Below are positions 1,268 to 64,000 of a DNA stretch of 64,000 bases, one piece after another. Within the stretch, counting starts at the first letter, position 1. Each line of letters opens with the position of its first letter. The translations under genes were made by a program, and so were the position numbers. The notes beneath the pieces are model-generated. The model made no database searches. It saw only the letters and a program-made list of their open reading frames with translations, and was not told where the DNA came from. Source of the DNA: Calliopum simillimum (taxonomy: Eukaryota > Arthropoda > Insecta > Diptera > Lauxaniidae); contig OX638368.1 of assembly GCA_951812925.1 (NCBI GenBank), forward strand, positions 114,723,309 to 114,787,308. The letters run 5' to 3'.

Positions 1268-4200
1268 TTATATGTCATAGAATATATTAAGTTTAAATAA
1301 TAGGTTTATAAAATTGCTGATATTGATTTCTGACGGTGTATTAAGTAGGGAAAAAATTGGAGGAATTTTGTGCGTAATTCGTATATTTTCTATTTCTGGA
1401 CAATTGAAGATGATGTGTTCAATGCAGGCTATTTCTGTTTGACAGTGTTGACATATGGGTGCTGAATCTCGTGAAAGATAATGTTGGTGTGTAAGTCTGG
1501 TGTGTCCTAGACGGAACCGAGTATAGGCTATTGTTTTTCTTCTATTTATTGCAATCGGGTAGGTAGGTGGAATTTGATTCGAATTGATGCTTTTGTAGTG
1601 GTGAGAATAAGCTGACCAGTGGGATTTATTAATATATAGTATTTTTTCATCAACTGCATTCCAAATATCTTTTTTAAAAGTTGTGGCAAAAGTAAAAGTT
1701 GGTGTCTTTGTTGCAAGCTTAGCAGCATTATCAGCAGCTGTGTTTCCTGCAATACCAATGTGCCCAGGAACCCAAATTAGTTTGAGTAGAGGAGAGTTAA
1801 TCAATAAATCCCGTATTTGTGAAATGGTTGTGTTATTGTTATTAATATTTTTGACTGCGTGGATAGTGGATAGAGAATCAGAGCATATGATATATTTTTT
1901 GTTTTTCTTGTGAGTTATTTTAATAGCTTGTAGTATGGCTACTGCTTCTGCTGTAAGAATGGAGGTATACCCGGGCAGAGCACCAATACAAAGTAGCTTA
2001 CCGCTCTCGTTTACTACCCCGAAAGCAACAGAATCTTTAGTTTTTGATCCATCAGTGTAAAAGCTCTTCCAATCGCTGAAACGGTTACGTATTTCAAAGA
2101 AGAGTTTACGAAATATTTCCGGATTTGTTTCTTGTTTAGTCCATTGATGAAGTTCTAACAAAATGCTTTCCGATCTTAAGTGCCAAGGTGGTTCTCGTAA
2201 GTGATAATTTTTTTCAATAGATATAATGATGTCGTTATCCTTAGCAAGTTGCAAAGCACTATATAGTGTTGATGGCTTTTTTGGTAGTCTCTTCCGTTTC
2301 ATAATTTTTTTTATTTGTTCATGAATTTGAGAGCCTTCCGAGTTCAAGATCTTAAAAGCTAACCTTCCTGTGAGTAGTGTGCATCGATTTTCTATGGAAG
2401 GAAGACCAGATTCCGTAAGGATATTTAGAATGGGAGTGGATCGAAAAGCACCCAGTGCTACTTGAAGGGCAGAATGATATATTGACTTGATTTTTTGCAG
2501 ATTTCGCCTCGATGTGACTCCAAACATTGGCAGACCATAATCAATTTTTGAAAGGATAATTGACCTAACAATTCCGATAAGGGAGTTTGTGTTGCTTTCT
2601 AGCTTTATACTACTTAAGCATTTTATAATATTAAGTCTCTTATTTAAAGTTTTAGAAAGGTTATATATGTGGCAATTCCAAAGATGCTTGTTGTAAAAGT
2701 AAATACCTAAGATCTTAAGTGATAATACATTTTGAATATTTACATTATTAGCATTGATTATAAAATTATTACAATTAATTTTCTTACATATATGTAAATG
2801 TTTAGATTTTTCTACGCATATTTTGTACCCACTATAATCACCCCATGACAAGAGATCCTCAAAAAGTTTGTTTGTTTTGTCAATAAACGTTGAAAAGTTT
2901 TTTACTTTACAATAAATGTAGAGGTCATCTGCGTAAATAACGTGCTTAAAGAATTTCTGGTCATCAATTATTTTACTAAGATTGTTGAAAGAAATTAGAA
3001 ACAGAACGACTGACAGAGGGGATCCTTGAGGAATCCCATTTTGCAATGGCCAAATATCTGAAAAGGTATTATTGACTTTAACACGTATTTTTCCATTTGA
3101 GAGAAAATTATAAACATAGTTTATAATTTTATTGCCCACTTTCCATTCTAGTAGCTTGTCAATGACAGAATGCACTCCTATGCGATCAAAAGCTTTCTCA
3201 GCGTCTATTGATATGAGTGAAAAGTGATTTTTAGATGACAAAGCATCACTGATATCTTGATCAATAGCAATTAAAGCATCTGTTGTGCCTTTTCCCCTTT
3301 TATAAGCTGATTGTTTACAAGAAAGAAGATTTTGTTCAGATAGCAGCCGAAATAGTCTTTTTGCAACAATTTTTTCAAGGACTTTGCTCATGCATTTAAG
3401 CAGAGAGATGGGCCTATAGCTATGTATTGAGTTATTTTCTTTGTTTGGTTTAAGGATGGGCACAATAGTAGCAACTTTTCATTGCTGTGGTAATTGACCG
3501 TTTATAAGGATTTCATTGTATATACTGCATAATTTCTTTTTAGCATTGTTAGGTAAGTACTTTAGTATTGGGTAGGATAACTTATCGTGTCTTGGGGTTT
3601 TACCTTTTAGACTATTGAGGCAAGACTGTAGTTCGAGCATAGTTATTGGTGCTTCAATTCTTTTTGCACGCGCAGACAAGTGATGTGAGGTGGAAATTCT
3701 CTCAGGGATACTATGTTTATTTTGAACAAAATTACTAAAGTTATGGTCCAGAGAAAAATCTGACCAGTTTTTACCAAACAGGTTTGAAATTTTTTTAGAG
3801 TCGCTTATGTTAGAGTCGCCCGAAATTTTTATGTATTTAATAATAGTGCAAGTGTTGCAATTCGAGAGGGCACGAACTTTGTCCCAAAGTACTTTTGACG
3901 GGGTTGAAGGATTAATGTCTTTCGTAAAATTTATGAAAGATTTTCTTTTTGCCAGCTTAGCTTCTCTTTTAAAGATTGCGTTTGCTTTTTTAAATTTAAT
4001 TAAATTTGATGTAGTTGGATGTCTTCGAAAAGTTTTCCAATATGTTTGCTTATCCTTTTGAAGGGCAGCTATGAGTTCAGTCCACCAGTATACTTTCTTT
4101 TTATAAGCTTTGTTGCTGGTCCTTGGTATTGAATCATTGGCACAGCTAACTATGCATTTTTGGAAACGAGACACTTTTTGATTAATGTTTGGTAAATTCA

Positions 4201-4966
4201 GGTTTAAGTTATCAATTTTTTCAGAAGTAAGTACGTCGAATTTACACCAGTTGGCGAAATCAGTTTTGTATCTAACTATTTTAGGACCATAGTAGTTTCT
4301 ATTGTCAGAAAAAAGTATAATATTTATTGGAAAGTGATCACTTCCATGAAGATTATCATCAACCGTCCAAGAGTAGGATATATTCAAAGGGGGTGAGCAC
4401 AAGGATAGGTTTATGTTAGTGAAAGAGGAATGTGTGAAAAAATGTGTGGGGGAATTGCCATTCATAAGAATCATGTTGCTGTTGTTGATAAAATCAGATA
4501 TTGTCCTGCCTTTACTGTTGGTTCTACTTGAGCCCCATAGAGTGCTCCAAGCATTAAAATCTCCAATAATTAAGAGAGGATTGTTAAAACATCTCAAAAT
4601 GTCATGCAGGTCACTTTCCCTGATATTTTCTTTTGGTCCCGAATATATGTTTATAACTATAAAATTTATTTCGGCTTCAATTTCTATTGCAATACAAAGA
4701 ATATTAGTGTTAATATTGATTAGACTATGTTTGATGTTTTTCGATATTAAAAAGGCGACACCCCGTTCTGCGTATTGGTTTGGATTAATATCATTTTTGT
4801 GATAAAGAACATATTTTTTGGGAATGCAAGTCTGGTGAGGAAATGAGATTAAGTGGGTTTCTTGAAGAGCTATTATATCGGGAAGTTTGTTTTTGATAAT
4901 AAGTTGTAGCTCATTGTAGTTATTGTAGTAACCATTGAGGTTCCATTGAAGGAATCTAAGTACCAT
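1268..4966 (-). pseudogene. I-clade LINE ORF2, one nonsense codon
   Basis: ORF2 starts at 4966. It carries an apurinic-type endonuclease at its N-terminus (LQWNLNGYYNN, QETHL, GDFNAWSTLWG, SDHFPI), then a reverse transcriptase (GIPQGSPLS, YADDLYIY near 2930-2945) and an RNase H domain (YTDGS, AEAVAILQA, CSDSLS, VPGHIGIAGN). A cysteine/histidine-rich tail (CQHCQTEIACIEH) follows. The frame is open for the whole length except for one TGA at 3479-3481, in the conserved LPxxWK stretch where a Trp (TGG) is expected. Two long ORFs of 495 and 731 codons lie on either side. One point mutation therefore separates this copy from an intact ORF of about 1,230 codons, which implies a young insertion. Confidence 0.9.
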
Positions 4967-5025
4967 AACTAACTTGGTGTACGAAAAATATTCTTAAATT
5001 TGTATAAATACAGATAGAGAATATT

Positions 5026-6145
5026 TTATGTTTTCATTTCCGCGTCTGAATCTGAACTAATATTTTGAGTATCAAGTGACGTTTGCCTTGAAGATGATTT
5101 GGTATTACGAATTGGAATTTTGGGATAAGTAGATTGTCTTGGAGAAATAACAGGTTGATCTGAAATGTCGAGGGATGCATTAGTTTGAAAAGAGTTATTT
5201 AATACGGTTGTGGTTTTTGTTGTTGGTGTGCTTTTTATTGGTGTTGTGGTGTTTATTGCTGTATTAATTTTTGTAGTTGGTGGTGTAACTGTGGGCAAAG
5301 TAGTTTTAGGTGATGAAGATTCATTTGTTGTTGTATTTTCAGAATTGTTGTTTTTTTCTGGGAGAGTTTTGAGTTTTCTTGTTTATTGTTATTATTTTGT
5401 GTATTGTTAGTCTTGTAAATTGTTTACTAGATTAAAAGTCTTGTTTTTTACAGCAATTGCATCTTTTAGTTCTTCTATAACGATTTGATTTGAAAATTGA
5501 GTATTTGCTTGTTCATTGATTGCGAGTGTTAAGTCTCTAAAGGTACATTTGTTTATTGTTTTGTATGTGAGTATTGATTGACGTTTTTTGTAAGTTCGGC
5601 ATTCTTTGTTGTTGGAGCGATGCTGTTTTTTACAGTTAATGCATTCAACCTTAGTACAGGGAGTTGGAATGTGCTCAGTTGTGGAACAAACAAAACAATT
5701 GTTTTCTACCTCGCAATGCTTTTTTGTATGGCCAATTACGTGACAATTCTTACACTGCATGGGAGTTGGTATGTACGGTTCAACCTTTATTTTGACCCAT
5801 GCTACCTCCAATTCATTTGGTAGGTCGTATAGATCAAAAGAGAGGATATGTAAAGAGGTGTTTAGAATTTTGTCGTCTTTGAATTTTATAATTTTTTTGC
5901 ATTCAGTGACGTGTTGGGATCGTTAACCTTCAACTATTTCATCTTCTGTTAGCTGTCTTAAATACTCTGAGAATACAACACCTTTGCAAGTGTTAAGTGT
6001 AGGGTGCAAAGAGACTGAGATTTGGCACAGGTTAGATAACTGTTTAGCTTTGAGAAAGAGAGCTGCTTGACGTTCACTTTTAGTTAATATCAATAAATGT
6101 CCCTCTCTTGTGTAAGAAGTTTGTGCTGTTTTTTCAGTAGATTAA
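5026..6145 (-). pseudogene. I-clade LINE ORF1 (gag-like), broken
   Basis: The minus strand encodes a gag-like protein with three consecutive zinc knuckles around 5755-5600: CKNCHVIGHTKKHC, CFVCSTTEHIPTPC and a third beginning CINCKKQH. This is the arrangement expected of I/Jockey-group nucleic-acid-binding ORF1 proteins. The upstream frame (about 6140-5812) is continuous with it except for a TAA near 5925. The downstream part (5298-5026) lies beyond another stop near 5404. A stop precedes the frame at its 5' side and no start codon is evident, so the N-terminus is lost or frameshifted. Confidence 0.75.
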
Positions 6146-6475
6146 AGTGTCCTTGAAACTGAAAAAACTCACTTAGCACTAACTCCCTTTCTTCGCAATC
6201 CAATTTTCAAAAACCACCAAATCTGGTGTGAAAAACACTAAGCTGGCACCTCTGCAAATGGTGAATTAAATGCCAGCTGTCAGCTGCTGTGTGATTGATA
6301 CGTAGGCTGCTATATATATTTCTGGCCTAGGCAACACTAAGTGTTGCCAGGTGCAATCTGACATTTCCATTGGAAAGTTTGACATTTTTTAGCATAAACG
6401 TACTCAGAACGTTTTGACGTACGATCATCATTTGTGTTGTTTACAGTGACTTGAAAAAATTAATTTGGCAAAAAA

Positions 6476-7486
6476 ATGGAATTAACTCGTGAACATTTTC
6501 GTGCGATCATTTTTCACAACTTTCGACGTGGAGTATCACGACAGGAGTGCATCGATGAACTTAAATCTTTGTATGACGATGAAGCACCATCTTATAGTAC
6601 TGTGAAAAACTGGTTTAATGAATTCCATCGTGGCCGACGCTCGCTCAAAGACGAATTCCGTGAAGGTCGTCCAAAAACGGCCGTTGTGCCAGAGAACATT
6701 GATGCCGTGCGTGAAATGATAATGCAAGATCGTTATGTGACATACCGTGTGATAGAAGCATCCTTGGACATTTCTCCCACCAACATACATTCGATATTGC
6801 ATGAACACATGGCCGTCAAGAAGGTTTGTTCCCGTTGGATCCCGTACAATTTGACAATCGCTCAAAAAAAGGCTCGTGTCGATTGGTGCAAAGAAATGTT
6901 GAAAAAATACGATCGCGCTGCTTCAAAAGACGTTTATAAGATCGTCACAGGTGACGAATCATGGATATATGTGTTTGAGCCCGAAACAAAACAGCAATCG
7001 ACCGATTGGGTCTTCGAAGACGAGCCAAATCCAACGAAAGTTGTTCGTGGAAGAAGCACTTCGAAGCAAATGGTCGCCTGTTTCTTCGGCAAAACTGGTC
7101 ATGTGGCGACTGTTTCGCTTGAGCAACGTAGGACGTTCAATTCTGAGTGGTACACCAGAATTTGTTTGCCTGAAGTCTTCGGAGAAATTCGAAAAATTAA
7201 CAAAAGAAGACGAATCATTGTTCACCATGACAATGCGAGCTCTTACACGTCGGCTGAAACCAGCGCCTTTTTGACCGGCCAAAACGTTGAATTGATGGGT
7301 CATCCGCCGTACAGCCCTGACTTGGCACCCAATGACTTCTTTTTATTCCCGCACATCAAGAAAAAAATGCGTGGTCAACGATTTTCGTCACCAGAAGATG
7401 CTGTTGAAGCGTTCAAAAACCATGTTTTGGAGGTGTCTCAATCGGAGTGGAAAAAGTGCTTCGACAATTGGTTTGAACGCATGTAA
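6476..7486 (+). pseudogene. mariner transposase, C-terminus lost
   Basis: A 336-residue mariner transposase with the N-terminal paired helix-turn-helix domain, WVPH-like linker (SRWIPYNLT) and the DDE/D nuclease domain. The catalytic triad looks complete: Asp160 (TGDESW), Asp252 (HHDNAS) and Asp287 (YSPDLAPND). The last two are separated by 34 residues, as in D,D34D mariners. The ORF ends in TAA directly after FERM, where related transposases have a Gln codon. The next codons still read KCINHAGEYFD, so the family C-terminus persists past a CAA-to-TAA change before the LINE insertion cuts it. Mostly intact but probably not active because of these two lesions. Confidence 0.9.
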
Positions 7487-7832
7487 AAGTGTATAAATCA
7501 TGCTGGAGAATACTTTGATTTGATTTGATTTATTAAAGTAATGTCAAACTGATACAACAAGATTCTTAATATAATCTTATAAATTATAGTACCAGCTTCA
7601 TGGATTAGGAGAAATATATCACATAGTTAGTACGATAAAGCTTAAGTTGTTAAAAATGTAGTGTATTATTTCTTAAATAAATTACAATTAAGGTTATTCA
7701 TAGCAATTTAGTTTACATCAAACATTAAAATTCGAACTTACAAATTACAAATACAATAAAATAAATATAATTATATCTATTAATAAAATAGGAGATTACA
7801 TATAAGTACATGGTATGAAGATACGAACCGGT

Positions 7833-10664
7833 TCAACAACGAAAATATAGCGAGAGTTTGTTTTTAAATTGCACAAAGGTTAGGTTAGATCGGAGTTCGG
7901 GGGGTAAAGTGTTCCAGAGGCGAATAGCATAAATATAAAATTGCCTTTCAGAAGTTAAACAGAAATGTCGGACTTGAATTAAGATTTTAGCACGATTGGA
8001 TCGTGAAAAGAGCAATCTATCATACAGATATTTAGGTTCACAGGAATTAATGACCTTATGCAACAGCAACAGAGTTCGGAATCGGAGAATATTTTCAAAT
8101 GTCATGTTACAAATTCTTATAGCAAACTGTGATACATGGTCGTTACGTTTCAGCCCAAAAACATATCTAGCAATGTTATTAAATAATACATTGAGTTTGG
8201 CTTTACTTGCAACATCACAATTTCCAAATATTTCACAGCCATAAAGGAGCGTAGGCAGCAGATAGGCTTTAGCAAGGAGTAATCGTATCCCTAATGGTGT
8301 GAAAAATTGCGTGATCCACAACACGCGCAGCATTCCATACACTTTGCCGGTGGTGTGTTGAATATGCGTGTTCCATGACAGGGTTCTATTGAAGGTTACG
8401 CCTAGGTTTTTAGCAGTGTCTACATAGGGAATAGGACAGCCATTTAGCATGATGGGAGGAAAACAATCGGTATTAATTACTTTTTTGGATATGACTATAC
8501 TCTTGGACTTTTTAGGGTTAATAGACAGACCATTTTCTTGCGCCCAGTCAGCTATACGATTCAGGTCATTGTTCATAAGTGTCACGTAATTTGGCACTCG
8601 ATCACGATCACAGCAACCATACAATTGCACATCATCAGCGTACATGTGGATGTTACAACTTTTTAGAATATTGGGCAGATCGTTAATGTATATGGAGAAG
8701 AGGAGTGGCCCTAGGACAGAGCCCTGAGGGACTCCCTTTCTAACAGGTAGAAAATTCGATACATTATTATTTGCACACACAGATTGCGACCTATTAAGCA
8801 AGTAGGATTGCACCAAACTTTTTGCACATTCAGAAAAGTTAAATAAATTTAGCAATTTAGTGCTTAAAATATTATGATCCACTGAATCAAATGCTTTTGA
8901 GTGATCCAAGAGAACTAAGAAGCAGACATTACCATCATCTAACCCCGAACGAAGGTTTTCAGCCACATCGATAAGTGCAGTGACACAGCTACGTTGAGCC
9001 CTGAAACCGGATTGTCGATCAGTAAAAAGATTGTTATCACGAATGAATTGGTTTATTTGTCGATAAAGCAGCAGTTCAAGAGCCTTAGACAGGAAGGGTA
9101 GAATAGCTATGGGTCGAAATTCGTTGAGCGATTTGGGAACAGGAATTATTTTAGCTTTTTTCCAGCTGCTTGGAAAGGTAGAAGAGGTAATTATGGCATT
9201 GAAAATATATGTAATAAATGGCAACAACACAGGAAGAAGAGCTTTTAAAAATGTTGGATTTAACTCATCAATTCCAGTGGCATTTGATTTAATAGCTATA
9301 ATACTCTCTAAAACTTCACATTGGTCAACGCAACGGAATGAAAAACTACGATTATTGGGAAGAATACCAGTAGAGTTGGCATAAACATTGTTTACAATTA
9401 CTGGCGAGGAAATGTTCACAAATTTTTCATTGAGGGCATTAACATCTGTGATGTTACAACTGCCAGCAGTGTTCTTTCCAATGCCTATTTCACGAATTAC
9501 AGTCCACAACTTCTTACCACCAACTGCGTTCTTGAATTTAGCACTGTAAAATTTAGTCTTAGACAACTTTATTTCGCTACTAACGGATTTTCGAAGACGT
9601 GAGAACTCAAAGTAAAGTTCAGGTGTTTTAAAGCATTTCCAGCGATTATAAGCAGCATTGCGCGATATGATAAGATTTTTAATCGAGCTATTGAACCATG
9701 GCTTTTGTTGGACTTTTGCCTGCTTAGTTTTAATAGGTACGAATTTGTTGAATAAGTAATTTAAATTATGCTGAAAAAAGTCTACCTGATTTTCAACAGC
9801 AGGCATTCTATAAATGGCTTGCCAATCAATTCTATTTACCTCATGACTAAGCTGAAGATAATTAATATGCTTAAAGTCTCGATAACTATATACGGTAGAG
9901 GAGACAGTGAATTCAAAATCAAAGCACAGATAGATGAGGTCATGTTTAGAGAAGACGGGTACTTCTAATTGATCATACAGCATAATTTTAGATTCATCGT
10001 TAACAAAAAAGAGATCAAGGAGAGTATTTCTGGTATTAGTGTAATGAGTAGGCACTGACGTATTCACAGAAAAAAGCCCAAGAGATATCAGATTGTCTTT
10101 TAAATGATTTTCCGACAAAAGATCACTATTAAAGTCACCAGCAATAATTATATTAGGGAAATTTAGCGATAAATGTTCGATTGTTTGCATGAGTGACGTT
10201 GTATCAACAGATCGATTAGGTCTATAAACACTGCCAATAAGTATCTGCAGTTTTTTACTGTTAGTGATTGAGAGAAACAGATATTCAATAGGACTATCAG
10301 AAACAGACTTACATACGAATTTGCACGTGATGTTATTGCGAACATAAATTGCAACTCCACCTGCGTGTCTATACCTGTCAGCACGAAAGATACGAAAACC
10401 ATTCAGACTAAACAAAGAATCCGTCATATCATTGGTAAACCACGTTTCGGAAATGCAAATGATGTCAACACCAGAACCTTCGAAAATGAACCGCAATTCG
10501 TCAATTTTTTTCGTTAAGCTTTGCGCATTGATGTGACAAACCTTTAGACCATGTCGTTGCTTAGAAAGAATCCGTATGAGATTGAATGTATTGTCTCTGG
10601 AACTATTAGTACCATTACCCAAACTGCTCATGAGAACGCGAAAATGTCGAAGTAACCTGTGCAA
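7833..10664 (-). CDS. LINE ORF2: endonuclease and reverse transcriptase
   Basis: An intact ORF of 943 codons. The N-terminal third is an endonuclease of the exonuclease-endonuclease-phosphatase fold (VCHINAQSLTKK, CISETW, GGVAIYV, GDFNSDL, SKHDLI). The middle is a reverse transcriptase with KAKIIPVPKS, FRPIAILPFLSKALE, DRQSGFRAQRSCVTAL, DHSKAFDSVDH, GVPQGSVLGPLLF and the catalytic MYADDVQLYG near 8640. The C-terminal LWNTLPPEL motif is typical of CR1/Jockey-group proteins. No stop or frameshift is visible, so it could encode an active protein for target-primed reverse transcription. Confidence 0.92.
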   Translation of the reverse strand: MHRLLRHFRVLMSSLGNGTNSSRDNTFNLIRILSKQRHGLKVCHINAQSLTKKIDELRFIFEGSGVDIICISETWFTNDMTDSLFSLNGFRIFRADRYRHAGGVAIYVRNNITCKFVCKSVSDSPIEYLFLSITNSKKLQILIGSVYRPNRSVDTTSLMQTIEHLSLNFPNIIIAGDFNSDLLSENHLKDNLISLGLFSVNTSVPTHYTNTRNTLLDLFFVNDESKIMLYDQLEVPVFSKHDLIYLCFDFEFTVSSTVYSYRDFKHINYLQLSHEVNRIDWQAIYRMPAVENQVDFFQHNLNYLFNKFVPIKTKQAKVQQKPWFNSSIKNLIISRNAAYNRWKCFKTPELYFEFSRLRKSVSSEIKLSKTKFYSAKFKNAVGGKKLWTVIREIGIGKNTAGSCNITDVNALNEKFVNISSPVIVNNVYANSTGILPNNRSFSFRCVDQCEVLESIIAIKSNATGIDELNPTFLKALLPVLLPFITYIFNAIITSSTFPSSWKKAKIIPVPKSLNEFRPIAILPFLSKALELLLYRQINQFIRDNNLFTDRQSGFRAQRSCVTALIDVAENLRSGLDDGNVCFLVLLDHSKAFDSVDHNILSTKLLNLFNFSECAKSLVQSYLLNRSQSVCANNNVSNFLPVRKGVPQGSVLGPLLFSIYINDLPNILKSCNIHMYADDVQLYGCCDRDRVPNYVTLMNNDLNRIADWAQENGLSINPKKSKSIVISKKVINTDCFPPIMLNGCPIPYVDTAKNLGVTFNRTLSWNTHIQHTTGKVYGMLRVLWITQFFTPLGIRLLLAKAYLLPTLLYGCEIFGNCDVASKAKLNVLFNNIARYVFGLKRNDHVSQFAIRICNMTFENILRFRTLLLLHKVINSCEPKYLYDRLLFSRSNRAKILIQVRHFCLTSERQFYIYAIRLWNTLPPELRSNLTFVQFKNKLSLYFRC

Positions 10665-10846
10665 ACTGATAGATATAATGAACCGATTTTACATAAACAA
10701 AAAGTAATTTTTTAACAATGCCAAAAGTATTATTGCAAAGATCAAAAAATAAATAAATAATTAAAAATAAATGAATACCTAAATAATGGATGCAAAACAT
10801 AATATGATGGACATCTGCTGAGTAGTGAGTGTTGGTTCGAATAGCT

Positions 10847-12097
10847 CTAGCTACGAAAAAACGGAGAGTGCTGAGCGCTTACATTGTTATCATCGATATT
10901 GGTGACTAAATTGGATGATTTTTCAGCGCTTACCTCAGCAGTATTGTTGCTTGGAACGCATGAACTTTCTACAGACTCTTCAGGTTTTGCATCGTCGCCA
11001 ACTAGAGCGCGTAATTTTTCTACGGACTCTACGGGTACTGCCTCATCGCCAGCATTAATTCTAATATGAACTACACCGCGTAATGTGAAAGCTGCTTTTA
11101 ACATGTTTTTTCGTTTAGACGACAGCGCCTCTTGCAAAATTGCAAAGTTGGTTTTAGTTATGCATTCATTCACATAGAAGTGCTTATCCGAACGGAAGCC
11201 AGCGAGGTTGAGACTAAGCGGAGATTGATTTGTGCGACGGAAAGCAGAAATGGACTTGAGCACAGAGTTACGTTCGTATGGCGTTTCAAACTTTATAATA
11301 ATTGGTGTGTCTAGTTTATTAGGTGCTGATAGTGAATTTTTTACCCGAAAAATGTTGCTAACTCTCGGCGTATTGATGTTGATTGAGGCGCATAAATTAT
11401 TAAATATATTACGGAGGTTTTCATCCTTACCATGAGGAATACCATTTACACGGAGATCACAGGCTACGGACGAGTTTTCCTGCTTGGCAATCTGTGCCTT
11501 AAGTGTAACTATCTCTGTTTTGAGAAACGCGATATCGGGAGCATTATTTTCAAGGATCTCAAGACGCTCTGTGACATCAGCGATTTTATTGTTAATAACT
11601 GCGATGTTCTGTCGAAATTCGTTTAGTATTCTATTCTCACTCTCTTTCACAATAGATTTAAATTTATCCTTAATTTGAGAGGATAGCAGTGTACCTAGTG
11701 CTTTTAGGCGCGAATCAATTATTTGCACTAAACTAGTATTTGGCTCATTTGGTGGTGTTGAGCAGTTTACTTTTAGCTGTGAAGCTGCTGGAGCAGCATT
11801 TTCAATAAGTTTAGCAACCGGCGGTACGTTGAGTGAAGTAGGCGTGTCATTTATAGATAAAGGGCTTTGAATAGCTTCCGACTGGTTAGTACGTACTGGA
11901 GGTGAACGCACGGAGGAGCGTCGAGACGAAAGGCAAGCTTTACAAAAGTATTGTTGTTTGCTTTGTTTCATAAAAACCAATTCATCGCTTGAAATATTAA
12001 CGCAGAGACAGTGGAAGTACTCAGAGCAGCCAACACATTTTATCTTTTTTTCGTCATCCAGATGACGCTCAACTTTAGATTGGCAAATACACGGCAT
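10847..12097 (-). CDS. LINE ORF1: PHD-like finger and RRM-like protein
   Basis: An intact 416-codon ORF upstream of ORF2 in the same element. The N-terminus has a PHD-type Cys/His finger (MPCICQSKVERH, CVGCSEYFHCLCV, YFCKACL). A Ser/Pro-rich linker follows, then a heptad-like segment (NRILNEFRQNIAVINNKIAD, LEILENN) that suggests a coiled coil. The C-terminal half resembles the RRM-like and C-terminal domains of L1/CR1 ORF1 proteins (RVNGIPHGKDENLRNIFNNL, VSNIFRVK, PIIIKFETPYERNSVL). Its role would be RNA binding and RNP formation. ORF1 and ORF2 are separated by about 180 bp. Confidence 0.85.
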   Translation of the reverse strand: MPCICQSKVERHLDDEKKIKCVGCSEYFHCLCVNISSDELVFMKQSKQQYFCKACLSSRRSSVRSPPVRTNQSEAIQSPLSINDTPTSLNVPPVAKLIENAAPAASQLKVNCSTPPNEPNTSLVQIIDSRLKALGTLLSSQIKDKFKSIVKESENRILNEFRQNIAVINNKIADVTERLEILENNAPDIAFLKTEIVTLKAQIAKQENSSVACDLRVNGIPHGKDENLRNIFNNLCASININTPRVSNIFRVKNSLSAPNKLDTPIIIKFETPYERNSVLKSISAFRRTNQSPLSLNLAGFRSDKHFYVNECITKTNFAILQEALSSKRKNMLKAAFTLRGVVHIRINAGDEAVPVESVEKLRALVGDDAKPEESVESSCVPSNNTAEVSAEKSSNLVTNIDDNNVSAQHSPFFRS

Positions 12098-12390
12098 ATT
12101 CGTAGTATGTGATTTTATTACACACGTTCAGAGAATATGTTTAAAATTTATAATTTTGTTATATAATTAGGTCGATGGTAACGCTGTATAAGCTTAGTGG
12201 ATTGTATTTAGTGGTTTCAGTACAATCTTTATAAAATGGATCTTGTTTATAATAGAGTCGAGACACAAACCTAGTGCGCAAAAAGGTTGATATAGCCACT
12301 TAGAAGCTTTCGCAGATTGTGGTCAGACTCAAAAAATTTTGTGGATCAGAGTTGACAGTTGTCAACCAAAACTCTGTTTTGTTTATTACT

Positions 12391-60154: not shown

Positions 60155-62492
60155 TTAAACGTCATCAAATAAACCTCTAGGCGGTCCTGCGTTTCGACGC
60201 TGTTCATCATTTTCATGTTCATCGAAATGTGTACCTTTAAAACCGATTTCTGCATGCGTGCTCACTCCAAAACGATCATTTATCTCATCAGAGAGACTAC
60301 GCGGAACATCTGTCCCAGATGATGAAACTGCAGCATAATCAAAGTTCTCACCATCTTTAAGTAGACCATCGGCTGGTGTACGCATCATGTTCAATTGTTG
60401 CATATTGCGATATTTTGAGACATATTCATTATTTGTCATGGCATCATTACGCGTAAATTCACGACGACGAGCCATAGCTTCTTCGGCCCGCTGACGACGC
60501 CGTTTTTCACGTGCTATGAGATCTTTACCCTCCTGTACAAGCTCAGTAGCTATTATTTCGTTTTGTAAAAATTGCTGAAATCCCATTGCATTCAAAAAGC
60601 GACTGCCTAAGCTGAACCATGTTGCAAGGCAAAATGCAAGCATACACATGGGAAAATATATATTAAATCCATCTGAAATTATGCCAATAACATCCATGTG
60701 ACCCATTATTTGGGTGTAAAATGTTTCCATAATACGCTGCAAAAAGTAAAAGTATAATATAAACATAGAAATTAAAAAACCACACTTACCTCTTTTATAA
60801 TATGTGAGTCCATATGGATTAAACCTAAAAAGTTTAAGCACATGGGAGACGTCAGACGACATAAGAGCATCCCACTGAATATCAAGCTATGTTCATTTGT
60901 TTGATGATGTGGCGCCAAGTAGTATAAATTTAAAAAGCGTATACGCAAAATTGTCGAATATGTGCAATAGAAAAGATAACAAAGCACTATCATCGAAAAG
61001 AATTCAATGGTAAAAAAATCATAATTTTCTTTTGCTAAATTAATGACGTTTGCAAATATTGAAAGTACAGGCCGACGATTAAAGAAAGTTAGCTCACTCC
61101 AAACCACCATGAAAGACATAATAGCTGATAAAATGCAAAGAAATTTGAGAAATGGCGATCGCAATAGACATTCCCAGTACCAGTGTATTGTAGGGCTGTA
61201 TACGAAACGTACTAAATTTGTGTGCTCTTTAGGAAATTCCGTTTTAAAGCGACGATCAGCAGAATGCATGTTTCTTGCAACGTCTTCCAAGTGCAATACA
61301 GTGCTAACTTGTACACTCCATAGTGCCTCCGTACGTTGTAAAGTTTGTAACGATTTTATTACTTGTTTATGTATGCGTACTAAGGCTTTTTCAGATGGTA
61401 CAATGGTCGATGTGCCTCCGTTGCCACCGCCACGTGTGTAATTCCGATTGGCGCGCTCTTGTAGTTCAGTGGGAACTTTTCGTAGTATGGTTTCGACACA
61501 GGGCCGTAACTCATGGTTATTTGGAACAGCACGACTGATACCTTGAAGCGATTCGAGCACATCATCGACATTTTCTTCGGCTTCAGCTTTATCTGAACTC
61601 AACTTTGCAGCTTTAAAGTATGCGTATTGAAGAGTAAAACCGGGTTTTGCGTTATTCCACAATGAACGGGGTACTTCCACTAGTGCATAACCTAATGAAG
61701 AAAATTTAATGATCAGTTGACAATGTATTGTTAATAATAATAGTGCTTATGCTGCGTATTCATAAACTTTTGCTAAGTTGCTAGCAACTGCTTGTGACTG
61801 AGCATATCTTCTTAGGAAGGAATGTGTCTTACCCAGCAATAATACTAGTAGGAATAGACCCCAAGTGTTTGATGCAGAAGAAGCAATTGCTTTTAGCTTT
61901 TGCCAATCTAAGGATACACCTTTTGCTGCAATATATATTAAGAGTATACCGCAAATAAACAAATATGATCCGTAGTAAATTGCGTTCTCTATTAACGCAG
62001 ATTTTAGTTTGCCTTTAATCGTAAAGTCGCCGGCCTTTAAATACGATTGCATCATTGGCATAATTAACCAAGTTAAGAATTGGGATGACCAGTATATAAT
62101 ACGCCATAGATTGGGAAATACCTCTTCTGGTATCATACCCCATGGTTTCTGACAATCGGTCTGTATAATATCATTATCCGAAATATTTAATTTAGTGTAA
62201 TTTCCAACAGGTACTGAGATCTCTTTGTGTTCTTGCAGACATTGACGATAAAGTGTCTAACAAATAAGTTAAAAAGGATATGATATATATTTATATTCCA
62301 TACTTTTTTGTAATTACTTACCGATGTCACATCGAATGGAATGGTAAAAACTATAAGGAAGGAGAAACACCACGCTATTAACACCGATAAGGTGACAATA
62401 ATGTGTTGCCTCTGTATATTGCCGTAGCGATAAAGTGAAATTCCTGCCGCCAGAAGTGCAGTAAAAATTGCAAATGTTAATACATAAGCCAT
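60155..62492 (-). CDS. LMBRD2: LMBR1 domain-containing protein 2 ortholog
   Basis: Exons 62492-62322, 62256-61833, 61691-60790 and 60736-60155 join in phase to 692 residues, the family length. The protein starts MAYVLTFAIFTALLAAGISL and has about nine hydrophobic membrane segments: three in the first 140 residues, more near 150-215, and a second group in the 390-560 range. A cytoplasmic Arg/Glu-rich stretch (about 555-600) follows (EKRRRQRAEEAMARRRE), and the tail ends PPRGLFDDV. PEEVFPNLWRIIYWSSQFLTW is typical of LMBRD2. Members are multi-pass membrane proteins linked to receptor signalling. The ATG has a strong context (AACAATGG). It begins 47 nt after the BBIP1 stop. Confidence 0.95.
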
Positions 62493-62539
62493 TGTTTGTT
62501 ATTTTCTCTAAAAATTATGTTTCTATAAATAATGGGAAA

Positions 62540-62767
62540 TTAGTTTCCCTTTTGAACTGTCCTTGCTGCTTTTGTCCTATTGATCTGAAGCTGACGAGCT
62601 ACTTCGCTTTGCATTTCCTCCAAACGTTCCAGAGCTTGAGATTTGAGAGGAATCAAATGTGGCTTGCAAAAGATCAACTCTGTTTTATGTTCGAAAAACA
62701 ATTTGCCTGTGGTCGGTTCAATAATATCGATTTTTTCATTTATTTTATTTAACTCTTCTGATGACAT
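62540..62767 (-). CDS. BBIP1: BBSome-interacting protein 1 (BBIP1) ortholog
   Basis: A single-exon ORF of 75 codons starting at MSSEELNK. The core GKLFFEHKTELIFCKPHLIP LKSQALERLEEMQ aligns with the [20 protein letters not shown] core of vertebrate BBIP1, with the same size and the same short C-terminal helix. BBIP1 is a small subunit of the BBSome, which moves membrane proteins in cilia. An upstream in-frame ATG at 62827 would add 20 residues; I prefer 62767 because it matches family length. The stop at 62540-62542 lies 47 nt before the LMBRD2 ATG on the same strand, with no room for a separate terminator and promoter of normal size. Confidence 0.85.
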   Translation of the reverse strand: MSSEELNKINEKIDIIEPTTGKLFFEHKTELIFCKPHLIPLKSQALERLEEMQSEVARQLQINRTKAARTVQKGN

Positions 62768-62896
62768 TACGCAAAAGCTGACGTCCCACAAGGAAATATA
62801 TTTTAGTGAATGTTTTTTAAACAACAAAGTTATTTGTTGTTGTCTGGAGTAAGTTACTACGTGTTTATCCGATGACTCCTTCGCTACGCTTTATAA
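62768..62896 (-). promoter_or_regulatory. BBIP1 5' flank bordering the Fanzor element
   Basis: This short interval holds the 5' UTR and perhaps the core promoter of BBIP1. It is bounded on the right by the probable end of the Fanzor-carrying element, so any more distant promoter has been pushed away. Confidence 0.35.
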
Positions 62897-62982
62897 CCCT
62901 TTCAGACCCGTCATACACAGTTGTGTTATCTGAATCCGAGCAGAGTTAAACCATTTTTCCTTTTGATCAAAAAGAGAAACGG
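62897..62982 (-). ncRNA. Candidate Fanzor guide RNA scaffold (inferred)
   Basis: In Fanzor and TnpB systems the guide RNA comes from the 3' flank of the gene up to the element end. Here the minus strand just past the Fanzor stop contains two short hairpins: CTTTTTGATCAAAAGG (about 62975-62960) and ACACAACTGTGT (about 62935-62924). It then ends at a possible element terminus, GGTCTGAAAGGG (62897 on plus: CCCTTTCAGACC). If so, the guide would be templated by the flank at about 62896-62876. Position and hairpins are seen; the RNA itself is inference. Confidence 0.3.
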
Positions 62983-64000
62983 TCAAGTAGACACATTTTC
63001 CTCGGTAGGAGCAATAGTGTTACTTTTGTATTTTTGGAAATTTTCGTGTTTTTGTGTCCCACTAATTATGCAGTCGCCCAGGTACAATATATTTACACCG
63101 GCATTAACATCTCGGTTCCAACAAGTATTGCAATTTGGACAAAATTGATACCTGTGTGGGGACTGAGATGTTTTATTTTCGGGTGATTTGCAATTTGCGC
63201 ACAACTTTGTTGTCCTGAATTCATTGATGAATATGATATCGACATTTCTTCGCTCTTTTAGTGCTTGTATGAATTTACGATGTGGTGTTCGTATGTAACC
63301 GCGAATTGGTGAATTTGATGATATTTCCGTAGACCCAATGCAAATTAAAGTTTGTTCTGCTACATCTCCCGCAAGTTCATTTGTTAACCGCTGACAGGTT
63401 TTTTCAACTTGTATGAACTTTTGTAATTTTAATCGCGTGACTTTTCGTTGACTAAAAATTTTTTGTTTCTCTTGAAAAATTTCCAACTCGTACCGAATAT
63501 ATTCGTCAAGATCGTTGATTGAATTGGAAGAAAATTTTGTATTTGGCGGACATTTTGAAGTAATTTTTGAAAGTTTGTATTTACGTGAATAAAACCCGCT
63601 CATGTGATGATATGTCGAACTTTTCAATTTTATCGGTTTCCCATTACGCACACCACCGTAGAGCAACCGAAGCCCCGGATCTAGACCAATTTTGTTTATA
63701 TATTTGGTGCATCTAATTTTCTCCAATTTTGTCGCTGAAAAATAATCCGTTTGTTTGCAACTTGTCATTTTGTTTTTTTCCTTCTTTTTCTTTAACACAC
63801 ACTTTGTCTTTACCATTGTTTTAGAATTGGGCTTTTGCATCAGGAATGAAACTGATACACCATCGGTCTGCAGTGAAAAAGCAAATTGGCTTTTCGGTAG
63901 TTTAAAGTATTTACACCAATATTCCTCACGGTTGAAATCCTTCCATGCGCCCTTGAATAATTTTAAAGAACAAAGTAAATTGAAATAAGCAAAAGAATCA
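62983..64000 (-). CDS. Fanzor (eukaryotic TnpB homolog), 5'-partial
   Basis: An open frame runs from the window edge (64000) to TGA at 62983-62985: 338 codons with no stop, the N-terminus lying outside. Numbered from the internal Met at 63840, it has QTDGVSVSFL just before (about 63876-63844), then RuvC-I IGLDPGLRLL (Asp54), a long helical stretch (about 110-155), CIGSTEIS (about 168-175), NEFRTTKLC (Glu207), a zinc ribbon with Cys214, Cys217, Cys234 and Cys237 (LCANC, FCPNCNTC), and RuvC-III WNRDVNAGVNIL (Asp244). This order is that of TnpB/Fanzor nucleases; the TDGVSVS motif is specific to Fanzor. Fanzors are RNA-guided DNA nucleases carried by mobile elements. Fanzor1 versus Fanzor2 is not settled. 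Confidence 0.9.
   Translation of the reverse strand, partial: DSFAYFNLLCSLKLFKGAWKDFNREEYWCKYFKLPKSQFAFSLQTDGVSVSFLMQKPNSKTMVKTKCVLKKKKEKNKMTSCKQTDYFSATKLEKIRCTKYINKIGLDPGLRLLYGGVRNGKPIKLKSSTYHHMSGFYSRKYKLSKITSKCPPNTKFSSNSINDLDEYIRYELEIFQEKQKIFSQRKVTRLKLQKFIQVEKTCQRLTNELAGDVAEQTLICIGSTEISSNSPIRGYIRTPHRKFIQALKERRNVDIIFINEFRTTKLCANCKSPENKTSQSPHRYQFCPNCNTCWNRDVNAGVNILYLGDCIISGTQKHENFQKYKSNTIAPTEENVST

What the first reader, a model, noticed from the sequence alone, without database searches (positions are those of the whole stretch)
62983..64000. Intact-looking Fanzor RNA-guided nuclease gene in a fly genome
Seen: 338 uninterrupted codons with RuvC-I Asp (IGLDPG), Glu in NEFRTT, a CxxC...CxxC zinc ribbon and RuvC-III Asp (NRDVNAG). 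Known: this order defines TnpB/Fanzor; Fanzors are guide-RNA-directed nucleases on eukaryotic mobile elements. Inference: the uninterrupted frame and retained catalytic residues suggest recent arrival or selection. Most elements nearby are decayed, which makes the contrast notable.
Basis: partly seen in the sequence, partly recalled or inferred. Interest (0 to 1): 0.92.

Follow-up and report, generated by a model that had tools for sequence, protein, structure and literature searches.

The report
Recently active Fanzor transposon family in fly
The window ends inside an intact gene for Fanzor, an RNA-guided DNA-cutting protein, in a family of jumping DNA that has recently spread through a fly genome, largely by an odd copying mode that keeps the tail of the element and varies its head.

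Summary
Window 62983-64000 (-) is the C-terminal 60% of an intact Fanzor1 gene: DPG, displaced RuvC-II Glu, CxxC..CxxC and RD motifs; best structural match Spizellomyces Fanzor. Beyond the window edge the frame stays open; the gene has one 79-bp intron and encodes 575 aa. It lies in a 2,480-bp element with 13-bp inverted repeats and a predicted 3' guide-RNA scaffold that pairs the inverted repeat with the TTA of the target site. The host, a schizophoran fly, holds at least 38 family copies with complete 3' ends (27 intact frames differ by 0.17% on average) and further Fanzor families.
The surprise is how copies arose. The 3' end is fixed next to TTA in 50 of 51 copies examined, while the 5' end is cut short or carries foreign flank. 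In 32 of 51 a 10-16 bp repeat of the target starting TTAN was found (1.6% in mismatched controls). The intron is kept in 36 of 36 copies spanning it, so copying is probably DNA-mediated. In 2013 the same signature was reported for Helitron-type Fanzors in Chlamydomonas, and it was left open whether Fanzor causes it. Its presence in a non-Helitron element supports Fanzor as the cause but does not prove it.

The parts
62983..64000 (-). Fanzor1 gene, C-terminal 338 of 575 codons plus stop (part of exon 2); continues past the window to an ATG at window-equivalent 64789, with a 79-bp intron at 64550-64628
63679..63681 (-). RuvC-I catalytic Asp of the DPG motif (residue 107 of the window frame)
   Evidence: motif position; invariant in the 18-sequence alignment
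63220..63222 (-). displaced RuvC-II Glu (residue 260), before the zinc ribbon as in Fanzors
63130..63201 (-). zinc ribbon CANC...CPNC (residues 267-290)
63109..63111 (-). RuvC-III Asp of NRDVNAG (residue 297)
   Evidence: position; nearly invariant in the 23-sequence alignment
62893..62985 (-). predicted reRNA (omega RNA) scaffold: hairpin 1 at 62984-62949, hairpin 2 at 62948-62894, the latter closed by the 3' inverted repeat and the TTA of the target site
   Evidence: z -4.9, pair probabilities, similar architecture in families B and C
62897..62909 (-). 3' terminal inverted repeat GGGTCTGAAAGGG; its mate CCCTTTCAGACCC is at window-equivalent 65364-65376
   Evidence: constant 3' boundary in copies
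62887..62896 (-). right copy of the probable 10-bp target-site duplication TTATAAAGCG (TTAT at 62896-62893); left copy at window-equivalent 65736-65745, beyond 359 bp of presumed foreign 5' flank
62878..62892 (-). expected guide segment: 15 nt of host flank after TTAT
   Evidence: inferred from reRNAs that extend about 15 nt past the TSD in insect-virus Fanzor1s (PMC10711439, section 27)
62540..62767 (-). host BBIP10 gene (PF14777); its ATG lies about 120 bp from the element's target duplication
60155..62492 (-). host LMBRD2 homologue, used to place the host

Best explanation
An intact Fanzor1 RNA-guided nuclease gene, carried by a recently active DNA transposon family of a schizophoran fly. 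Shown by sequence: the conserved catalytic set, constraint on the protein, 13-bp inverted repeats, TTAN target sites, near-identical dispersed copies, and a 3' end that is fixed while the 5' end varies, with 10-16 bp repeats of the target in most family-A copies examined and the intron retained. Inferred: the 3' hairpins plus TTA form the reRNA scaffold and the next ~15 nt of host DNA is the guide, so the protein would cut the same site where it is empty. Many new copies are made at the DNA level by a one-ended process: it joins the element's 3' end to TTAN in the target, copies leftwards for 0.4-4.3 kb, stopping short of or passing the element's 5' end, and closes the 5' side by microhomology end joining. 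A minority of copies have complete ends and a matching 4-bp repeat, as expected of ordinary cut-and-paste movement. Which enzyme makes the one-ended insertions is not shown.
For: Fanzor1 identity. Constraint: the frame keeps 55 of 59 columns that are >=75% conserved in 20 outgroups, against 52-56 in the eight nearest relatives; dN/dS against family B 0.095. Family: 109 PF07282 matches in the genome, one of them on a probably bacterial contig; 38 matches of 289 nt or more to the 3' 300 bp at 96-100% identity plus two pieces of an interrupted copy (40 of 136 candidates scored, so a lower bound); 27 of 39 family-A loci keep the 515-codon main frame and 2 more a 512-codon one. reRNA. Copying mode: TTA after the 3' end in 50 of 51 copies; own right-flank prefix of >=11 nt found upstream in 28 of 51, against 0.24% of 2,546 mismatched pairs. 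Source and copy: L023/L024 and L035/L034/L036 share 5' flank but differ right after the 3' end, and the L034 repeat ends within 1 nt of where homology to L035 begins. Intron kept in 36 of 36 copies spanning it. Microhomology >=3 nt at 9 of 12 junctions with direct contact, against 8% by chance. No mirror class seen: the 15 listed 5'-region hits that reach into the first 30 nt are all in copies that also have the 3' end (best 40 of 51 candidates).
Against: No RNA, protein or nuclease assay was possible. The reRNA fold is a prediction; 21 of 4,124 93-nt windows of the sequence fold as well. In 19 of 51 copies no repeat of 10 nt or more was found, 8 of the 9 family-B copies among them; upstream sequence was short for some. 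For the window copy the repeat is only 10 nt, a length reached by 1.6% of mismatched pairs, and the source of its 359-bp flank was not found. No empty site was examined. Of 28 family-A copies with a repeat, 20 inserts are 1.93-2.56 kb long, so 5' ends cluster around the element's own 5' end more than random stopping would give. Right flanks of different copies are not alike beyond weak site preference, so nothing shows that guides choose new sites.
Confidence: 0.81

Rival explanations
1. The one-ended copies are aberrant products of a trans-acting DDE transposase that normally moves the element by its inverted repeats; Fanzor is a passenger.
For: Of the eight copies with a complete or one-mismatch 5' inverted repeat and a 3' end, six have matching 4-bp repeats, one of them ATAT/ATAT and one TTAA/TTAA (read from the sequences printed). 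The 3' junction at TTAN is the same in both classes. 5' ends cluster around the element's own 5' end.
Against: Most repeats found are 10-16 bp, not 4 bp. Family C ends differently from GGGTCTGAAAGGG but three of its four analysed copies show the same mode. Helitron-type Fanzor1s in Chlamydomonas show it too, whereas it was seen in only 1 of 200 elements of a Helitron family without Fanzor there (PMC3627910, section 8).
Confidence: 0.35
2. The Fanzor protein and its reRNA cause the 3'-anchored mode: RNA-guided breaks at TTAN sites are repaired by copying from the element's 3' side (homing of empty alleles, or ectopic copying), and aborted synthesis leaves 5'-truncated copies with the target stretch up to the cut duplicated.
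For: The mode is shared by Fanzor1 families with different ends in this fly (A 28 of 38, C 3 of 4, B 1 of 9) and in Chlamydomonas, and 11-12 bp TSDs with variable 5' regions occur in a Mucor Fanzor (PMC3627910). Junctions show microhomology and filler as in end joining. TnpB drives insertion sequences by cutting empty plasmids (PMC11870625, abstract only).
Against: Foreign 5' flank carried to new sites needs an ectopic template. Right flanks (guides) of the copies do not match each other. Published Fanzor1 cuts lie after the 14th to 21st base past the TAM (PMC10432273 passages), farther than most repeats here reach.
Confidence: 0.3
3. Target-primed reverse transcription of an unspliced element transcript by a LINE.
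For: 5' truncation, 5' flank carried along, 10-16 bp duplications and microhomology are hallmarks of LINE retrotransposition (recalled).
Against: The intron is retained in 36 of 36 copies spanning it. The 3' end has no poly(A) or tail repeat and stops at TTAN. The two LINEs in the window have ATCAA-repeat and A-rich 3' tails instead; other LINEs of the genome were not looked at.
Confidence: 0.15
4. A relic or a host-domesticated single gene.
For: It lies next to conserved host genes.
Against: At least 38 near-identical dispersed copies with different right flanks.
Confidence: 0.02

Closest known systems
Fanzor1 of insect viruses (ascoviruses, baculoviruses) and of the Hessian fly (PMC3627910, Bao and Jurka 2013; PMC10711439)
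   Same: Fanzor1 protein alone in a non-autonomous element, 13-bp inverted repeats and TTAN target sites (viral elements), reRNA at the 3' end with inverted repeat and TSD in the scaffold
   Different: Here a higher-fly genome with many near-identical copies, one intron, and the 3'-anchored mode with 10-16 bp repeats, which the sections and passages read do not describe for insect elements
CRe-1/2/3 Fanzor1 elements of Chlamydomonas (PMC3627910, section 8 read)
   Same: 3' end intact, frequent 5' truncation, extra 5' sequence in some copies, 7-19 bp duplications in the aberrant class, T-rich 5' context
   Different: CRe elements have Helitron ends and no TSD in complete copies; the fly elements have inverted repeats or other ends and TTAN sites
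SpuFz1 (Spizellomyces punctatus Fanzor1, PDB 8gkh, 9ceu)
   Different: About 17% identity in the fold alignment; TAM CATA and 30-nt repeats (PMC10432273 passages)
Relatives in databases: Rhagoletis zephyria LOC108365044 (P0029), Contarinia nasturtii LOC116336741 (P0038), unnamed P0001
   Same: Predicted 575-aa product: 56% identity to P0001 (563 columns), 52% to P0029 (316), 27% to P0038 (579)
   Different: P0029 covers only the N-terminal part; no element structure of these was examined

Membership tests
Fanzor1 | RuvC-I DPG, displaced Glu before the zinc ribbon, CxxC..CxxC, Asp 4-8 residues after | tested here: met
   published pattern matches residues 107-297
Fanzor1 | Fold closer to Fanzor1 than to Fanzor2, TnpB or Cas12 | tested here: met
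Fanzor1 | Carried by a mobile element, often without a transposase gene | tested here: met
   dispersed copies with inverted repeats and target repeats; no frame above 87 codons in the element besides the two Fanzor exons
Fanzor1 | reRNA at the 3' end that includes inverted repeat and TSD | tested here: inconclusive
   predicted fold z -4.9, similar in families B and C; no expression data
Fanzor1 | RNA-guided DNA cleavage | not testable with these tools
   needs an assay
Fanzor2 / IS607 type | Serine recombinase gene in the element (some members) | tested here: not met
   the element holds no long frame besides the two Fanzor exons
Helitron-borne Fanzor | CTRR-3' end and no target duplication | tested here: not met
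   ends GGG, TTAN site, target repeats present; definition from PMC3627910 (passage)
One-ended transposition as described for CRe-1/2/3 | 3' ends intact, 5' ends variable with occasional extra 5' sequence, 7-19 bp duplications | tested here: met
LINE-mobilised element | copies lack introns and end in poly(A) or tail repeats | tested here: not met

The most novel reading that the evidence does not exclude
Fanzor1 is not a passenger but the cause of a distinct mobility mode: its RNA-guided breaks, or its reRNA-bearing 3' hairpin, anchor copying at the element's 3' end into TTAN sites. The 10-16 bp repeats, truncated or over-long 5' ends and microhomology junctions in this fly genome would then be scars of Fanzor activity in an animal.
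Probability: 0.3. Interest if true: 0.92.

Novelty: new variant of a known kind. Interest (0 to 1): 0.74.

Why it matters
What Fanzors do for their elements is not settled. In 2013 Bao and Jurka wrote that it was not clear whether the Fanzor1 protein or element length explains the odd 5'-truncated, duplication-flanked insertions in Chlamydomonas. The same signature in elements of another kind, in an animal, clearly in two Fanzor families of one genome and in one copy of a third, argues against a Helitron-specific cause. It offers young copies, traceable source and copy pairs and a living host in which the question can be tested. The window copy is also an intact animal Fanzor with a well-defined candidate reRNA and candidate TAM (TTAN, with T-rich context).

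Tried and rejected
Viral contigs: scans with the homologue alignment and with distant relative P0022 found no relative. Rfam: no match at E<=1 for 62500-64000. Spliced copies as proof of an RNA step: none found; the 319-bp deletion common in the family and the deletions in L036 have no fitting GT-AG ends (my inspection). Guide-directed choice of new sites: right flanks resemble each other slightly more than the mean of controls (0.319 against 0.295, within the control maximum 0.323); beyond TTA only weak preferences at positions 4, 7 and 8 exceed every control position. Variants shared along the element could not decide which copy seeded which. The conserved-column test within the nearest clade made the window look less constrained (107 of 126, against 94.7-99.1% for the other eight), but those eight form a clade without it; with 20 outgroups it is like them. 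Variants within the family (21 non-synonymous, 12 synonymous among 27 intact copies) do not show selection by themselves. Family D: its 3' end was placed by the hairpin itself (L054), so it is no independent support. Literature: Fanzor with gall midge gave no paper; some searches listed, by title and shown abstract, no paper on Fanzor elements of a fly genome or on one-ended or duplication-flanked Fanzor insertions other than PMC3627910, but some lists were cut (one search showed 5 of 2,879, 12 of 99) and only open-licence papers are held, so this is no proof of absence.

Full report
What is in the window. On the minus strand 63999-62983 is an open frame of 338 codons. Pfam finds the Cas12f1-like TNB zinc domain; the best PDB sequence match is Spizellomyces Fanzor (E 1.7e-4), followed by LaTranC and weaker Cas12m and TnpB rows. 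The closest full-length relatives have 538-550 aa and show that the window begins near residue 230, so the N-terminal part lies to the right of the window. The catalytic and zinc positions are kept, and the motif pattern used in PMC10711439 to find Fanzor-type RuvC (passage) matches. Models of the window part (mean pLDDT 73.7) and of relative P0001 (82.7) both match Spizellomyces Fanzor best in Foldseek and VIA-align (for the window part the lead is small).

Host. The neighbours are BBIP10 and LMBRD2. LMBRD2 is closest to Rhagoletis (84%), Scaptodrosophila (84%), Cochliomyia (83%), Drosophila (up to 82%) and Teleopsis (82%), and in a tree of 34 sequences it branches with Tephritidae and calyptrates, support 0.83. 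I take the host to be a schizophoran fly outside the families sampled; its name is not known here. The genome has 690 Mb in 334 contigs, and the window is an inner stretch of contig C1.

The whole gene and element. Reading on from the window, the gene has an ATG at window-equivalent 64789, a 79-bp GT-AG intron and a 575-aa product. The element has the inverted repeat CCCTTTCAGACCC at both ends, 2,480 bp end to end, and no frame above 87 codons besides the two Fanzor exons. The copy in the window ends at 62897 and is followed by TTAT.

The reRNA. The 93 nt from the stop codon to the TTAT fold into two hairpins, z -4.9. In a longer transcript the second hairpin still ends at the inverted repeat plus TTA; 21 of 4,124 93-nt windows of the 64 kb fold at least as well, 8 of 1,282 with similar G+C. 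Family B (same inverted repeat, different hairpin 1) and family C (unrelated 3' sequence) fold the same way, z -6.0 and -4.0. In the six sequences of families A, B and C that I folded, and in D_L054 whose end I placed by the hairpin itself, the last hairpin pairs an upstream UAA with the UUA of the target site; with 25 nt of flank added, copy L060 loses one of those pairs. This agrees with what PMC10711439 reports for Fanzor1 of insect viruses (section 27 read). That this RNA is made is inferred.

Constraint and age. The frame keeps conserved columns as well as its relatives do. Under neutrality an intact frame of this length becomes unlikely (5%) after about 1.6-2.5% divergence, with assumed indel rates. 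Against family B of the same genome dN/dS is 0.095, with dS 2.27 close to saturation; for the other family pairs dS could not be computed. In 27 of 39 family-A loci the 515-codon main frame is intact; mean pairwise divergence of those 27 is 0.17%, maximum 0.71%.

How the copies arose. Of the 109 PF07282 places I fetched 55 with their surroundings: 39 loci of family A, 9 of B, 5 of C and 2 of D. The repeat analysis used 51: 38 A (without the interrupted L040), 9 B, 4 C (without L057), no D. TTA follows the 3' end in 50 of 51, ATA in one. The 5' end varies: some copies reach the 5' inverted repeat, many stop 5 to about 330 bp short of it, two are only 409 and 426 bp long, and others extend beyond it. 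The first 10 or more nt of the right flank recur upstream in 32 of 51 copies (A 28 of 38, B 1 of 9, C 3 of 4) against 1.6% of 2,546 mismatched pairs (4 pairs with the same first 8 nt left out); for 11 or more nt, 28 of 51 against 0.24%. These lengths include any microhomology with the element. T is frequent just before the repeats (24 of 32 at -1, background 31%). Of the 28 A inserts, 20 are 1.93-2.56 kb long, so 5' ends cluster around the element's own 5' end; most loci were found through the C-terminal domain, but the 3'-end search (40 of 136 candidates scored) added no shorter ones.

Foreign 5' flank. L024 shares about 0.8 kb of contiguous 5' flank with L023, plus a 173-bp piece that in L023 lies about 4.4 kb further out, yet has a different right flank and a 15-bp repeat at its outer edge. 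L034 carries 2.1 kb of the L035 flank, and its 15-bp repeat ends within 1 nt of where homology to L035 begins. L036 carries parts of the same flank with a 13-bp repeat. One stretch missing from L036 is an 881-bp inverted-repeat element that sits in L035 between TA repeats. For the window copy the inner 4-mers differ (TTAA left, TTAT right), and a 10-nt repeat TTATAAAGCG lies 359 bp further out, so it too was probably made this way; the source was not found.

DNA, not mRNA. The intron is present in 36 of 36 copies that span it (one has an 11-bp deletion in this stretch). Of 21 junctions listed, one gave no anchor; 12 have direct contact between target repeat and element, 9 of these with 3 or more nt of microhomology (8% expected by simulation); 8 were classed as filler, of which L010 and L035 only because a private substitution stopped the exact extension. 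No copy keeping only the 5' end was seen: all 15 listed hits reaching the first 30 nt of the 5' region lie in copies with a 3' end (best 40 of 51 candidates; L040 is not in that list, and the two parts of its 3' end lie about 3.7 kb apart).

Two classes. Of the eight copies with a complete or one-mismatch 5' inverted repeat and a 3' end (L009, L014, L017, L022, L028, L038, L043, L048), six have matching 4-bp repeats (four TTAT, the commonest 4-mer and so weak evidence, one TTAA, one ATAT), and L009 and L038 do not; this is read from the sequences printed, whose own left4 column is offset by 3 nt. L014 also has an 11-nt outer repeat. So ordinary 4-bp transposition probably exists beside the one-ended mode.

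Comparison. PMC3627910 (Bao and Jurka; sections 8 and 12 and passages read) describes 5'-truncated, 3'-intact Fanzor1 elements with 7-19 bp duplications in Chlamydomonas, found in only 1 of 200 elements of a Helitron family without Fanzor, and says it is not clear whether Fanzor1 or element length is responsible. It also describes 11-12 bp duplications with variable 5' regions in a Mucor Fanzor, and TTAN plus 13-bp repeats in insect-virus Fanzor1s related to 13 Hessian fly families. The fly elements here combine the insect-virus type of ends with the Chlamydomonas type of insertion. The common factor is Fanzor, which is why I give the Fanzor-driven reading 0.3. Against it stands that no guide match to new sites is visible, that 5' ends cluster near the element's own end, and that an unknown transposase could do the same.

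Verdict. Identity as an intact Fanzor1: near certain. reRNA: likely. One-ended DNA copying as a main recent mode of family A: likely. Fanzor as its cause: open.

Noticed in passing
window 1271-4993 (-), 6464-7483 (+), 7836-12127 (-): Other elements in the window also keep long open frames: two LINEs (736+504 and 951+426 codons) and a Mos1-like transposase (340 codons, no inverted repeats of 20 nt or more found in 6100-7800).
   Followed up: partly
window 62492-62767 (-): The BBIP10 stop codon lies about 47 nt before the LMBRD2 start codon, a possible two-gene transcript.
   Followed up: no
L001 (G000:C295:15675): The strongest PF07282 match in the assembly is a TnpB-like frame on a 53% GC stretch, probably a bacterial contig.
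   Followed up: partly
L035, stitched position about 5489-6371: An 881-bp inverted-repeat element (GGGGAAAGTGGGG ends, TA repeats) sits in L035; L036 keeps the site without it, so it is either a later insertion or an excision.
   Followed up: partly
L033, 5' flank and right flank: A direct repeat of nearly 50 bp with three mismatches flanks the element, much longer than in other copies; long duplications were also reported in Chlamydomonas.
   Followed up: no
element 5' region, reference 1902-2047 (L009 reverse complement): A piece of about 146 bp of the element's 5' region occurs elsewhere in pairs 0.6-9.5 kb apart, as if shared with another repeat family.
   Followed up: no
L056, L058, L059, L060 3' ends: Family C copies differ in their last bases, yet each keeps pairing between an upstream UAAC arm and the TTA of its own target site (folded without flank).
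   Followed up: partly
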